From positions 558,001 through 622,000 of the forward strand of contig NZ_CP034891.1 in the NCBI RefSeq assembly GCF_005083565.1: 64,000 nt of DNA. The letters run 5' to 3'. Under the pieces are notes generated by a model that did no database searches, had not been told where the DNA came from, and was given only the letters and a program-made list of their open reading frames with translations. Made by a program: the position numbers and the translations under genes. Of the stretch, positions 54,238 through 57,866 are shown in pieces; position 1 is the first letter of the stretch; every line of letters starts with the position of its first letter. This DNA is from Buchnera aphidicola (Acyrthosiphon lactucae). GTDB lineage: Bacteria > Pseudomonadota > Gammaproteobacteria > Enterobacterales > Enterobacteriaceae.

Positions 54238-55148
54238 ATGATTTTCTCTTTTTATAAATGGATAGTATTTTTTATCTTTTTAATCACATTTCAAATTAAA
54301 GCTAATAATAAAAATAATATTTCCTTAAAAAGAAACTATTCCAAAAAAATAGATAATTTTTTTTTAAAAAAATAAAATATACAAAAAAGAATTATGAAGT
54401 TAAAAAAGAACTATCTAAAAATTACAAAAATAATAATAAAAATATAAATGCATCAAAAAAAATCATAATAGTAATAGATGCTGGACATGGAGGACACGAT
54501 CCCGGAGCAATTGGAATAAAGGGATTACAAGAAAAAAAAATAAATATTGAAATTGCACTTCGACTTAAAAAATTACTAAATCATGATAGTATGTTTTATA
54601 CAATTCTAACTCGTAATAATGATTCATATATTTCATTAAGAACAAGAAAAGAATTTCTCAAAAAAAATCACGTAAATTTATTAATATCTATTCACGCTGA
54701 TTCTTCTAGAAAACAATATGTATCAGGAGCATCTGTTTGGATAATTTCAAAAACTAGAATAAATCGTGAAATTGATAATTACTTGAAAAAAAAAACAACG
54801 ATTCTTTTTTCTGAACAAATTGAACACATTTTAAATGAAAATAAAAATGATGTTTTTTTAAAAAAAACTATTCTGGATTTACAATTTAATAATTTTCAAA
54901 AAATAGAATTAGATTTATCTAAAAAAATATTAGAACAACTTAAAAAAAATACAAAATTAAATAAAAAATATCCAAATTATGCTAGTTTAGGTATATTAAG
55001 TGTTATTAACACACCTTCCATATTAATAGAAACAGGTTTTATTACAAATTTTTCAGAACAAAAAAAATTAAGAACTGCTGATTATCAAAATAAAATTGCT
55101 AATTCTATTTATTTAGCTCTGAAGCATTATTTTAATAATTCATTTTAA
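54238..55148 (+). CDS. amiB: N-acetylmuramoyl-L-alanine amidase AmiB, frame broken at a T9A7 tract
   Basis: Periplasmic zinc amidase that splits septal peptidoglycan. The ATG at 54238 has TAAGG seven bases upstream and begins a signal peptide (MIFSFYKWIVFFIFLITFQI). That frame stops at 54373-54375, after nine T and seven A (54357-54372). The catalytic domain continues in another frame: IIIVIDAGHGGHDPGAIG, ISIHADSS and SILIETGFIT carry the zinc histidines and glutamates. One extra T or A joins them into 303 residues. The AMIN targeting domain of E. coli AmiB (445 residues) is missing. Confidence 0.87.
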
Positions 55149-55240: not shown

Positions 55241-55459
55241 TTAATTTAATTCTTTCTTTGTAAATTTAAAACGCTTTTTAAATCTTTCAACACGGCCTCC
55301 AGTATCAATAACTCTTTGTTTTCCTGTATAAAATGGATGACATTTTGCACATATATCTAAATTTAAATTATGATTAATAGTAGAAAAAACTTCAATTATG
55401 TTCCCACAAGAACAAGTAGCTGTTATCTTAGAATAACAAGGATGAATTTTTTTTTTCAT
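55241..55459 (-). CDS. rpmE: Ribosomal protein bL31
   Basis: Large-subunit protein bL31 of the zinc-binding type. The start [20 protein letters not shown], with AGGA nine bases upstream, gives 72 residues against 70 in E. coli; the frame runs ten codons further without resemblance. The four zinc cysteines are in TCSCGN and [15 protein letters not shown]. It is convergent with amiB; priA, its E. coli neighbour, is absent. Confidence 0.96.
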
Positions 55460-55572
55460 ATAAAGAATTCCTAAATTAATTTGAAACATCTATGTCTATT
55501 ATACGAGTATTAATATATTAATACTAAAAAAATTATCAATTTTATTTATAAAAAATAATATGCAGAAAATAT

Positions 55573-55820
55573 ATGTATTATAATAAAAAAAAATCAATTC
55601 TATATATTTTAAAAAAAAAAATAATAAAAAAAATAAATTCATATATATATATTTAGCTTTAATATCTATATTTATTTTTTTTGTTTATTTGAATATAAAT
55701 TCAAAAAAATTTCCTCAAATAAAAAATGAAAATTTTATAAAAAACACACAAAAAGATGAGGTATTACCTCCTAAGCCAAAAGAAAAATGGAAATATATTA
55801 AAAAACTAAAAAATTTATAA
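55573..55820 (+). CDS. ftsN: Miniature FtsN (anchor plus essential peptide), frame broken at an A11 tract
   Basis: Not found as one open frame. The ATG at 55573 runs MYYNKKKSILYILKKK into eleven A (55611-55621) and as written stops after 27 codons. One more A moves it into the frame KFIYIYLALISIFIFFVYL (a membrane segment) and then VLPPKPKEKWKYIKKLKNL, stop. The last part matches residues 75-92 of E. coli FtsN (LPPKPEERWRYIKELESR), including the W, Y and L known to be essential there. The product would be 82 residues against 319; the long linker and the SPOR domain are gone. It lies directly before hslV, where ftsN is in E. coli. Confidence 0.75.
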
Positions 55821-55992: not shown

Positions 55993-56523
55993 GTGACTAC
56001 AATATTGAGCGTAAGATTAAAAAATAAAGTAGTAATTGGAGGTGATGGACAAGCAACTTTAGGTAACACAATTATGAAAAGTAATGTAAAAAAGATTAGA
56101 TCTTTATATCATGAAAAAGTAATTGCTGGTTTTGCAGGAGGAACCGCAGATGCGTTTACTCTATTTGAAATGTTTGAAAAAAAATTAGCTATGTATCAAG
56201 GTCAATTACAACGTGCAGCTATTGAATTAGCAAAAGATTGGCGATCTGATAGAATGTTACGAAAACTTGAAGCTTTATTAGCAGTTGCTGATAAAGAAAC
56301 TTCTTTAATAATTACAGGAAATGGAGATGTAATACAACCTGAAGATGATTTAATAGCTATAGGATCAGGGGGTTCTTATGCTCAATCTTCTGCTCGAGCA
56401 TTAATAGATAACACTGATTTAGATGCAAATCAAATTGTAGAAAAATCATTAAATATTGCTGCTAATATTTGTATATATACAAATCACACTTTTACTATAA
56501 AAGAACTATTTTCAGAAAAATAA
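55993..56523 (+). CDS. hslV: ATP-dependent protease subunit HslV
   Basis: Proteasome-like peptidase of the HslUV complex. It begins with GTG: (M)[19 protein letters not shown]. The catalytic threonine is residue 2, exposed after removal of the start residue. It is 176 residues, the E. coli length, with [20 protein letters not shown] and [18 protein letters not shown]. It is 11 bases before hslU and they form one operon. Confidence 0.97.
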
Positions 56524-56534
56524 GGATTATCTCT

Positions 56535-57866
56535 ATGTCTGAAATGACTCCTCCTCAAATTGTTTCTGAACTTGATAAATTTATTATTGGTCAAGAAAAA
56601 GCAAAACGAGCTGTGTCTATTGCATTAAGAAATCGTTGGCGTCGTATGCAGTTAAATAGTGAACTTCGTCATGAAATTACACCTAAAAATATTTTAATGA
56701 TTGGTCCGACAGGAGTAGGAAAAACAGAAATAGCAAGACGATTAGCTAAATTAGCAAATTCTCCTTTTATTAAAGTAGAAGCAACTAAATTTACTGAAGT
56801 CGGATATGTTGGAAAAGAAGTAGATTCTATTATTCGTGATTTAACTGATGCTGCGATAAAAATGATCCGAATTAGAAACATTGAAAAAAATAAAATTCGA
56901 GTAGAAGAAATAGTAGAAGAAAAAATTTTAGATGTTCTTGTTCCTAGACCTAAGAAAAATTGGACAGAAAGTGAAAAAAATGAAAGTCTTTCCAAAACTA
57001 TTCAAATATTTCGAAAAAAATTACGAGAAGGTGTTTTAGATGAAAAAGAAATAGAAATTAATGTATTAGCAACTACTATGGGTGTTGAAATTATGGCACC
57101 TCCAGGTATGGAAGAATTAACTAGTCAATTACAATCTTTATTTCAAAATTTAAGTGGACATAAAAAAAACAACAGACGTCTTAAAATTAAAGATGCTATT
57201 ATACTATTAACAGAAGAAGAAGCAGCTAAATTAATTAATCAAGAAGAAATTAAAAAAGAAGCTATTAATGCAGTTGAACAACATGGTATAGTTTTTATTG
57301 ATGAAATTGATAAAATATGTAAACGAGGTGATTCTTCTGGTCCAGATATTTCTCGAGAAGGTGTTCAAAGAGATTTACTTCCATTAGTTGAAGGATGTAC
57401 TGTCTCTACTAAATATGGCATGGTTAAAACAGATCATATTTTATTTATTGCATCTGGAGCATTTCAAACATCTACACCATCTGATTTAATTCCTGAATTA
57501 CAAGGACGTCTTCCAATTAAAGTTGAACTACAAGCACTTACTATTGATGATTTTGAAAAAATCTTAACAGAACCTACAGCATCTATTACTGCACAATATA
57601 AAGCACTTATGAAAACAGAAGGTGTTTGTATCAATTTTACTAAAGAGGGAATACGTAATATTGCAGAAGCTGCCTGGAAAGTTAATGAATCTATGGAGAA
57701 TATTGGAGCTCGCCGATTGCATACTATATTAGAAAAATTAATGGAAGATATATCTTTTAATGCTAGCGATAATAAGGGTAATACAATTGAAATTAATTCG
57801 AATTACGTAGGAGAGCATTTAGATCAATTAATATCTAATGAAGATCTTAGTCGTTTTATATTGTAA
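56535..57866 (+). CDS. hslU: ATP-dependent protease ATPase subunit HslU
   Basis: AAA+ unfoldase that feeds HslV. The start [20 protein letters not shown], with AAGGA upstream, gives 443 residues, exactly the E. coli length; the frame overlaps hslV further upstream but is not family-like there. Walker A is [13 protein letters not shown] and Walker [10 protein letters not shown]. The C-terminal [11 protein letters not shown] tail, which docks into HslV, is intact. Confidence 0.97.

What the first reader, a model, noticed from the sequence alone, without database searches (positions are those of the whole stretch)
55573..55820. A miniature FtsN reduced to membrane anchor plus the essential division peptide
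Seen: between rpmE and hslV a short gene reads MYYNKKKSILYILKKK, a membrane helix, then VLPPKPKEKWKYIKKLKNL and a stop. Known: in E. coli FtsN the segment from residue 75 to about 93 is the essential part that activates the septal synthase, and W83, Y85 and L89 in it are needed. The match keeps those residues, and the protein ends at that point, without the linker and SPOR domain. Its place before hslV is that of ftsN in E. coli. This is the smallest FtsN layout I can imagine, and it would be missed by annotators because of its size and frame break.
Basis: partly seen in the sequence, partly recalled or inferred. Interest (0 to 1): 0.85.

Follow-up and report, generated by a model that had tools for sequence, protein, structure and literature searches.

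The report
Buchnera's stripped-down FtsN division trigger
A tiny gene in this aphid symbiont is what is left of the bacterial division trigger FtsN, cut down to a membrane anchor and the one short peptide that switches on cell-wall synthesis; most of the relatives examined still keep that peptide under selection although a published survey lists the gene as absent.

Summary
Between rpmE and hslV, where E. coli has ftsN, the window encodes a basic tail, a hydrophobic segment and ...LPPKPKEKWKYIKKLKNL-stop. A profile of 63 full-length FtsN ranks this frame first of 1482 (E 6e-10). The ORF is in 31 of 35 Buchnera spacers, the window's included, always stopping at the codon of E. coli Q93; W83, Y85 and L89 are invariant in 31 of 31. 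The 18 E-peptide codons have dN/dS 0.14 (p 2.5e-18 against 1), and 0.17 on tips of copies interrupted at poly-A runs. No SPOR match in 25 of 25 genomes. So it is a selected, SPOR-less FtsN. The window's own copy is interrupted near an A9 run and its tip alone (0.46) shows no selection. Two genomes keep ftsW/ftsI without it; both have a lost or changed FtsL docking segment. Ten carriers lack a class A PBP match, pointing to FtsL-FtsWI rather than PBP1b. Not wholly new: databases call some Buchnera copies FtsN, and SPOR-less FtsN is published for Serratia symbiotica; a 2023 review lists ftsN as absent in Buchnera.

The parts
55573..55593 (+). Presumed start (ATG TAT ...) and first codons of the cytoplasmic tail, up to the A9 run
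   Evidence: An ATGTA[TC] lies 190-270 nt before the stop in 29 of 31 ORFs, the window's included; M1 and Y2 invariant in the 13 uninterrupted copies. No start codon is proven.
55585..55593 (+). A9 run, the likely place of the frame change and a possible slippage site; further A-runs of 11 (55611-55621) and 8 (55626-55633)
   Evidence: Runs listed; all three lie in the overlap of the start frame and the downstream frame
55587..55817 (+). Downstream open frame of 77 codons: basic tail, membrane segment, linker, E peptide
   Evidence: profile match 27-92 of 94
55638..55688 (+). Hydrophobic membrane segment (FIYIYLALISIFIFFVY), approximate limits, by inspection
   Evidence: no membrane-helix predictor was run
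55764..55817 (+). FtsN E-domain peptide LPPKPKEKWKYIKKLKNL (E. coli residues 75-92)
   Evidence: W83, Y85, L89 equivalents invariant in 31 of 31; dN/dS 0.136, 2dlnL 76.2
55818..55820 (+). Stop codon TAA at the position of E. coli Q93 (CAG)
   Evidence: Same column in 31 of 31 Buchnera ORFs, 29 TAA and 2 TAG; E. coli codon 93 is CAG
55241..55489 (-). rpmE, left neighbour
   Evidence: PF01197, E 9.8e-30
55993..56523 (+). hslV, right neighbour (hslU follows, ending at 57866)
   Evidence: PF00227, E 6.2e-25; order as in E. coli ftsN-hslV-hslU

Best explanation
The gene is the orthologue of ftsN, cut at codon 93, most simply in the ancestor of the Buchnera genomes that carry it, so that only the cytoplasmic tail, membrane anchor, short linker and E peptide remain. 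As modelled for E. coli, the anchored E peptide most likely docks between the AWI segment of FtsL and the neck of FtsI and switches FtsW-FtsI to septal wall synthesis. Without SPOR it cannot bind denuded glycans, so it would be brought to the septum by the divisome itself. In 18 of 31 genomes, the window's included, the tail is interrupted, mostly at a poly-A run; the full product would then need transcriptional slippage. Shown: homology, position, truncation point, selection on the E peptide across the clade, association with ftsW/ftsI and with the FtsL segment. Inferred: the docking, the activation, the slippage, and that the window's copy still works.
For: Homology: E 6.3e-10; at E up to 1, FtsN models NF008179 in 13 and TIGR02223 in 12 of 13 members, best 1.7e-6 and 1.9e-6; gene order. 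Conservation: (31 ORFs; W, Y, L89 and final L invariant, same stop). Selection: E peptide 0.136, linker 0.27, membrane part 0.48, HslV 0.021; 18 interrupted tips 0.170, p 1.1e-12 against 1; 16 of them without L014 and L025 0.114; 13 uninterrupted tips 0.125. Coupling: G005 has no match for ftsW, ftsI, ftsL or mini-ftsN. Of 19 Buchnera-like genomes outside the genus, none has mini-ftsN at E under 0.01, an uninterrupted ftsW, or an ftsI-type match. FtsL WRNLI[IL]EK is kept in 33 of 35 genomes with ftsL read; the other two, G008 (segment absent in every frame) and G046 (N83E, I85M, A90M in E. coli numbering), are the two that keep ftsW/ftsI but lack mini-ftsN, on separate branches. My arithmetic: 1 in 528 for 31 carriers and 2 non-carriers, not corrected for kinship. 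Class A PBP: 10 of the 31 carriers have no such match. Papers (passages): E peptide L75-Q93 essential and sufficient in vivo (PMC7939390); W83, Y85, L89 most sensitive and modelled against FtsL L86/A90 and FtsI V86/Y168 (PMC10390529).
Against: 18 of 31 ORFs, the window's included, are not open from the presumed start. Tip branches include time before the frame changes. G008 and G046 do without it. PMC5574713 (passage) found no transcription error restoring a frame in Buchnera. PMC7939390 (section heading) reports that the E peptide binds PBP1b and not PBP3, FtsW-PBP3 or FtsBLQ. PMC9116674 (passages) argues that cell-wall and division genes are not lost together in Buchnera and that its wall does not generally support division. 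The E. coli D5 motif of the tail is not recognisable. No expression or protein data were available.
Confidence: 0.72

Rival explanations
1. A decaying pseudogene: the 5' end of ftsN left over after truncation, kept by chance in an eroding spacer.
For: Frame changes or a missing start in 18 of 31 copies, three genomes without it, two relaxed copies, window tip not distinguishable from neutral.
Against: E-peptide dN/dS 0.136 over the clade and 0.17 at the interrupted tips, both far below 1; stop position and W, Y, L fixed in 31 of 31.
Confidence: 0.13
2. Functional in most Buchnera but dead in the window's own strain, where the frame change is a recent loss.
For: Window tip dN/dS 0.46, p 0.21 against 1; precedent in L014 and L025.
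Against: The window's E peptide LPPKPKEKWKYIKKLKNL is complete; the interrupted copies taken together are constrained. Power of the single-tip test is low.
Confidence: 0.3
3. The E peptide is kept for stimulating the class A synthase PBP1b, not FtsW-FtsI.
For: In vitro E-peptide binding and a crystal structure with PBP1b (PMC7939390, passages).
Against: 10 of 31 carriers have no class A PBP match and 2 more (G024, G051) only a short one, while ftsW and ftsI matches are present in all 31 (in G012 the ftsW match contains stops); the two losses with FtsWI kept go with the FtsL segment.
Confidence: 0.06
4. The spacer is conserved as a regulatory or RNA element for hslVU, and the ORF is incidental.
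For: Conserved elements, sRNAs and sigma-32 sites are reported in Buchnera spacers (PMC3164680, passages).
Against: Constraint is codon-shaped, strongest in the E peptide, and the frame matches FtsN in order along 66 profile positions. No RNA-structure scan was run.
Confidence: 0.03

Closest known systems
Full-length FtsN of Enterobacteriaceae (E. coli K-12 b3933, 319 aa)
   Same: Place before hslV, basic tail, one membrane segment, linker, E peptide LPPKPxxxWxYIxxL
   Different: Buchnera's ends at codon 93: no Gln-rich linker, no SPOR domain; no recognisable D5 motif in the tail
SPOR-less FtsN of Serratia symbiotica (PMC5013485, passages; locus L086, isolate PERIS-14S)
   Same: Same kind of truncation; L086 stops with TAG at the Q93 codon, exactly where Buchnera stops
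   Different: In L086 FtsN sequence is still readable behind the stop, so it looks recent; Buchnera's is shared by 31 genomes. Another S. symbiotica protein (P0020, 113 aa) ends 22 residues later
FtsN of Candidatus Gullanella endobia (L104) and of unnamed G089 (L124)
   Same: Open frames of 104 and 90 codons, TAG at the Q93 codon
   Different: Other lineages (the kinship of G089 was not tested); G089 has FtsL E88, not K88
Buchnera entries named Cell division protein FtsN in UniRef or NCBI (P0007, P0008, P0013, P0018; P0009's name is cut off at 'Cell division p')
   Same: Same gene in other Buchnera
   Different: Other copies are unnamed or 'hypothetical protein'; I saw no paper that describes them
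E. coli FtsN constructs without SPOR (E peptide L75-Q93; FtsN 1-119), as cited in PMC7939390, PMC9525312, PMC5013485 (passages)
   Same: Anchor plus E peptide, or E region alone, reported sufficient for division
   Different: Buchnera's is a natural chromosomal version

Membership tests
FtsN (cell division protein FtsN) | Orthologous place upstream of hslVU | tested here: met
   rpmE / ORF / hslV-hslU in the window; cytR-ftsN-hslV-hslU in E. coli K-12
FtsN (cell division protein FtsN) | Sequence homology to FtsN over tail, membrane segment and E domain | tested here: met
   Profile from 63 full-length FtsN, E 6.3e-10, positions 27-92 of 94
FtsN (cell division protein FtsN) | E domain with W83, Y85, L89 | tested here: met
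   31 of 31 ORFs
FtsN (cell division protein FtsN) | C-terminal SPOR domain (PF05036) | tested here: not met
   0 of 25 genus genomes have a SPOR match at E 0.001, while 16 of 16 genomes of other families do; the ORF ends at codon 93
FtsN (cell division protein FtsN) | Curated NCBIfam cut-off (TIGR02223, 107.65 bits; NF008179, 525 bits) | tested here: not met
   Best E 1.9e-6 and 1.7e-6 among 13 members; 20.8 bits for the first member. The cut-offs were made for full-length proteins
FtsN (cell division protein FtsN) | Tail motif with D5 for binding FtsA | tested here: inconclusive
   By inspection, the Buchnera tail MYxxKxKIN is too diverged to align with E. coli AQRDYVRR
FtsN (cell division protein FtsN) | Supports division / activates FtsWI | not testable with these tools
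   Needs a complementation test; only association with ftsW, ftsI and the FtsL segment was tested

The most novel reading that the evidence does not exclude
Buchnera runs the smallest natural FtsN switch known to me: anchor plus E peptide, acting through the FtsL AWI segment on FtsWI without SPOR, without a class A PBP match in 10 of 31 carriers, and (by the 2023 review) without FtsQ and FtsK. Its divisome may be partly pre-activated by changes that in E. coli lessen the need for FtsN: FtsL K88 in 34 of 34 genomes where the segment exists, FtsW I269 in 18 of 23, FtsA positions 50 and 286 changed in 23 of 23 (16 of the latter R to K). In many lineages the full peptide is made only through slippage at poly-A tracts. 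Where the peptide was lost with FtsWI kept, its FtsL docking segment was lost or changed too.
Probability: 0.3. Interest if true: 0.8.

Novelty: new variant of a known kind. Interest (0 to 1): 0.62.

Why it matters
A 2023 review scores ftsN as absent in the 38 Aphidinae and 15 Lachninae Buchnera it examined and concludes that such bacteria use other ways to switch on septal wall synthesis (PMC10591338, passages). The present data say that the trigger peptide is still there in 31 of 36 genomes of this genus. They also give a natural deletion series: in Buchnera, Serratia symbiotica, Gullanella and the unplaced G089, FtsN stops at the very same codon; with E. coli's codons it is the first after W83 where one C-to-T or G-to-A change gives a stop. 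The joint fate of the peptide and the FtsL AWI segment, and its retention without a class A PBP match, bear on the open question of what the E peptide acts on. Purifying selection on copies interrupted at poly-A runs makes slippage rescue in symbionts testable at one small gene.

Tried and rejected
Pfam scan of the 13 uninterrupted members: no consistent family; stray weak hits to unrelated families. Solved structures: nothing convincing; best hit troponin T, E 0.24. The A1 match in G008 at 608972 (E 1.9e-4) lies largely antisense to a downstream coding frame and was judged chance. A relocated copy in G005, G008 or G046 was looked for genome-wide and, apart from that match, only matches at E 0.36 or worse were found.

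Superfission-site enrichment: among 956 sites invariant in E. coli plus 20 free-living genomes (FtsL, FtsI, FtsW, FtsA), 3 of 8 activating sites are changed in every Buchnera read (G008 and G046 left out), against 136 of 956 overall (p 0.09); for the window genome 4 of 8 against 276 of 956 (p 0.17). So a pre-activated divisome is not statistically supported; E-to-K and M-to-I are also what AT pressure favours (my reasoning). FtsI contact residues: Y168L occurs only in G008 and V86L only in G046 (V86I in two carriers), but G008 changes 6 of 58 and G046 5 of 57 otherwise invariant FtsI columns, so I give this little weight. FtsB was not examined.

IQ-TREE codon runs gave no omega that I could read and failed with omega fixed; replaced by my own codon-likelihood script. 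In one search L027 was in the wrong orientation; corrected and later. No structure prediction was run: the tool folds single chains and the question is a complex.

Rows set aside: G009 (stretch withheld, all N), G017 (spacer partly N; both visible ends fit), L149 (reversed, spacer not read), L086 and L104 left out of the profile. Fifteen of the 80 loci gave no FtsN in my motif search; one is L044, Buchnera of Pemphigus obesinymphae, whose spacer shows no FtsN motif and which lacks the wall pathway by PMC9116674.

Full report
WHAT IS THERE. Between rpmE and hslV the window holds an ORF in two frames. The first runs from ATG 55573 and stops at 55654-55656. The second is open from 55587 to the stop at 55818-55820 and encodes KKINSIYFKKKNNKKNKFIYIYLALISIFIFFVYLNINSKKFPQIKNENFIKNTQKDEVLPPKPKEKWKYIKKLKNL. 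E. coli K-12 has cytR-ftsN-hslV-hslU at this place. A profile made from 63 full-length FtsN found upstream of hslV in the named loci, cut after the E domain, ranks this frame first among 1482 stop-to-stop frames of the window: E 6.3e-10, 35.8 bits, profile positions 27-92 of 94. The next frame scores 8.7 bits, and the best of 40 random windows with the same base-step frequencies 10.3. The resemblance is therefore homology and not chance.

RELATIVES. Of 36 genomes of the genus searched, the window's included, 35 have HslV. In 31 of the 35 spacers an ORF ends in the same motif. In one more (L019, G017) the middle is masked and both visible ends fit. Three lack it: L022 (G008), L031 (G005), L035 (G046). 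The 36th genome (G009) is withheld at this place. A profile of 13 uninterrupted copies finds 31 of 36 genus genomes at E below 1e-15 and none of 19 Buchnera-like genomes of other genera at E below 0.01; 18 of those 19 spacers were read and none holds the motif. In the 31 ORFs the W, Y, L89 equivalent, the last L and the stop position are fixed.

SELECTION. On a tree of 1000 bases of hslV-hslU DNA, a codon model gives dN/dS 0.136 for the 18 E-peptide codons (2dlnL 76.2 against 1, p 2.5e-18), 0.27 for the 24 codons before it, 0.48 for the membrane part and 0.021 for HslV. Synonymous change is large on the long branches, so the values are rough, but the contrast with 1 is strong. The terminal branches of the 18 copies that are not open from the presumed start give 0.170 (p 1.1e-12 against 1), of the 13 uninterrupted ones 0.125. 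Without L014 and L025 the interrupted ones give 0.114. L014 and L025 alone look relaxed (0.86, 0.93). The window's branch alone gives 0.46 and is not different from 1 (p 0.21). Tip branches include time before each frame change, so this is evidence for continued use, not proof.

FRAME CHANGES. In 14 of the 18 interrupted copies an A-run of 9 to 19 lies in the overlap of start frame and downstream frame, so that one slip there could join them. Two (L023, L030) are in phase but have a stop in between and would need two slips. Two (L014, L033) have no ATGTA start in range. Since the region is A-rich, an A-run in the overlap is partly expected. A protein named 'Cell division protein FtsN' from the symbiont of Protaphis terricola (P0018, longest contig 607,166 bases, the length of G011's contig) reads across the frame change seen in L040, so its annotators seem to have treated it as one gene. 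A review passage reports 12-50% corrected transcripts at poly-A runs in frameshifted symbiont genes (PMC5009743). Against this, a transcript-error study of Buchnera saw many A-run insertions but no case that restored a frame (PMC5574713, passage).

TRUNCATION POINT. E. coli codon 93 is CAG. Buchnera has TAA (29) or TAG (2) there. Whether G089 is independent of Gullanella was not tested. With E. coli's codons, Q93 is the first after W83 that one C-to-T or G-to-A change turns into a stop; my reading is that this chance and the need for the E peptide together fix the end point. Other reduced genomes end elsewhere. Residues after position 92: G151 8, G069 13, G166 16, G269 20, G168 30, G059 32, G098 51, G129 58, G090 62, G109 85, and longer in G064 (138) and G117 (186); G139 ends one residue earlier and has a changed E peptide. 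The G269 and G109 matches held stops. A search among short proteins gave 12 hits, several of them on short contigs and so possibly partial; of those whose tails I counted, P0028 (Sodalis sp. Fse) and P0026 end 14 residues after 92. Of 19 further HslV loci, 5 had an FtsN match in reach (G069, G139, G151, G166, G058); the other 14 had none below E 0.01.

WHAT IT ACTS ON. FtsW and a transpeptidase match of the FtsI type are present in 35 of 36 genus genomes (in G012 the FtsW match contains stops); the exception, G005, also has no match for mini-ftsN or ftsL. In the 19 related genomes of other genera there is no uninterrupted FtsW (one remnant with stops, G237), no FtsI-type match (one match in a 763-codon frame, G081, which I take for class A) and no mini-FtsN. 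This contrast is largely one clade against others, so it counts for few independent events. G069, of another genus, has a mini-FtsN; its ftsW was not searched. Within the genus, FtsL was read in 35 genomes: 33 keep WRNLI[IL]EK, in several behind a frame change; G008 has lost the segment in every frame and G046 reads WRELMIEKNM. These two are the ones that keep ftsW and ftsI without mini-ftsN, and they sit on separate branches. In E. coli models this FtsL segment and FtsI V86/Y168 receive W83, Y85 and L89 (PMC10390529, passages), and the tested changes R82E, N83K, L84K, L86F, E87K and A90E are dominant negative (PMC7733951, table passage). Ten carriers (G002, G011, G012, G014, G015, G021, G023, G041, G044, G050) have no class A PBP match, and G024 and G051 only a short one, which speaks against PBP1b as the reason for keeping the peptide, despite its in vitro binding (PMC7939390). 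A comparative study, in contrast, sees no joint loss of wall and division genes in Buchnera (PMC9116674, passages).

A HINT THAT DID NOT REACH SIGNIFICANCE. FtsL position 88 is K in 34 of 34 genus genomes with the segment and E in 30 of 30 loci of other Enterobacteriaceae close to E. coli's FtsL. FtsL E88K lessens or removes the need for FtsN in E. coli (PMC7733951, PMC10390529, passages). FtsW M269I, also activating in E. coli, is found in 18 of 23 genus genomes read, and FtsA positions 50 and 286 differ from E. coli in 23 of 23, at 286 mostly to K (16 of 23); in E. coli G50E and R286W are the bypassing changes (abstract in the listing, PMC11323482). All four positions are invariant in 20 of 20 free-living genomes. 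FtsI R167 is unchanged in 35 of 35 and K211 in 30 of 35. Activating sites are not significantly enriched among changed sites (p 0.09 over all, 0.17 for the window genome). Of 19 other symbiont FtsL aligned there, 14 keep E88.

KNOWN OR NEW. A 2023 review tabulates ftsN in 0% of 38 Aphidinae and 15 Lachninae Buchnera and infers other mechanisms (PMC10591338, passages). SPOR-less FtsN was described in Serratia symbiotica, with the remark that most such diminutions are common in small genomes (PMC5013485, passages; its supplement was not read). UniRef or NCBI already name some Buchnera copies FtsN. Eight papers in the library hold both 'Buchnera' and 'FtsN'; I read passages of four and saw the other four only in the listing; none that I saw describes this gene. 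Two more searches listed seven papers, of which I read passages of three (PMC10591338, PMC5013485, PMC9116674). I therefore call it a new variant of a known kind.

VERDICT. The gene is a genuine, clade-wide, selected remnant of FtsN reduced to anchor and E peptide. Whether the window's own interrupted copy is still expressed as one protein is open.

Noticed in passing
window 54238-55148 (+): amiB next door also looks split: a signal-peptide-like ORF (54238-54375) and an amidase frame (54357-55145, PF01520 E 4.3e-48) lie in different frames and overlap at a T- and A-rich stretch.
   Followed up: partly
FtsL loci of the genus, e.g. L165, L167, L172, L175, L177: FtsL shows the same pattern as mini-FtsN: in several genomes the AWI segment WRNLIIEKN sits behind a frame change at an A-rich stretch.
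   Followed up: partly
L160 (G008) and L164 (G046): G008 FtsL ends before the AWI segment; G046 FtsL carries N83E, I85M, A90M. Both genomes lack mini-ftsN but keep ftsW and ftsI.
   Followed up: yes
L159, L178 and the dcw loci of 23 genus genomes: FtsW I269 (18 of 23) and FtsL K88 equal known E. coli superfission changes; FtsA 50 and 286 also differ. Enrichment not significant.
   Followed up: yes
L253 (G069) 1205 onward: A genome of another genus, HslV 80% identical, has a mini-FtsN of 83 open codons ending 13 residues after position 92; FtsL position 88 is L there.
   Followed up: no
L086 (Serratia symbiotica PERIS-14S) 1562-1849: FtsN with a TAG at the Q93 codon and FtsN sequence still readable behind it: apparently a fresh truncation at the same point.
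   Followed up: partly
L019 and L161: Part of G017's spacer and the whole G009 stretch read N (withheld), so these two genomes could not be scored.
   Followed up: no
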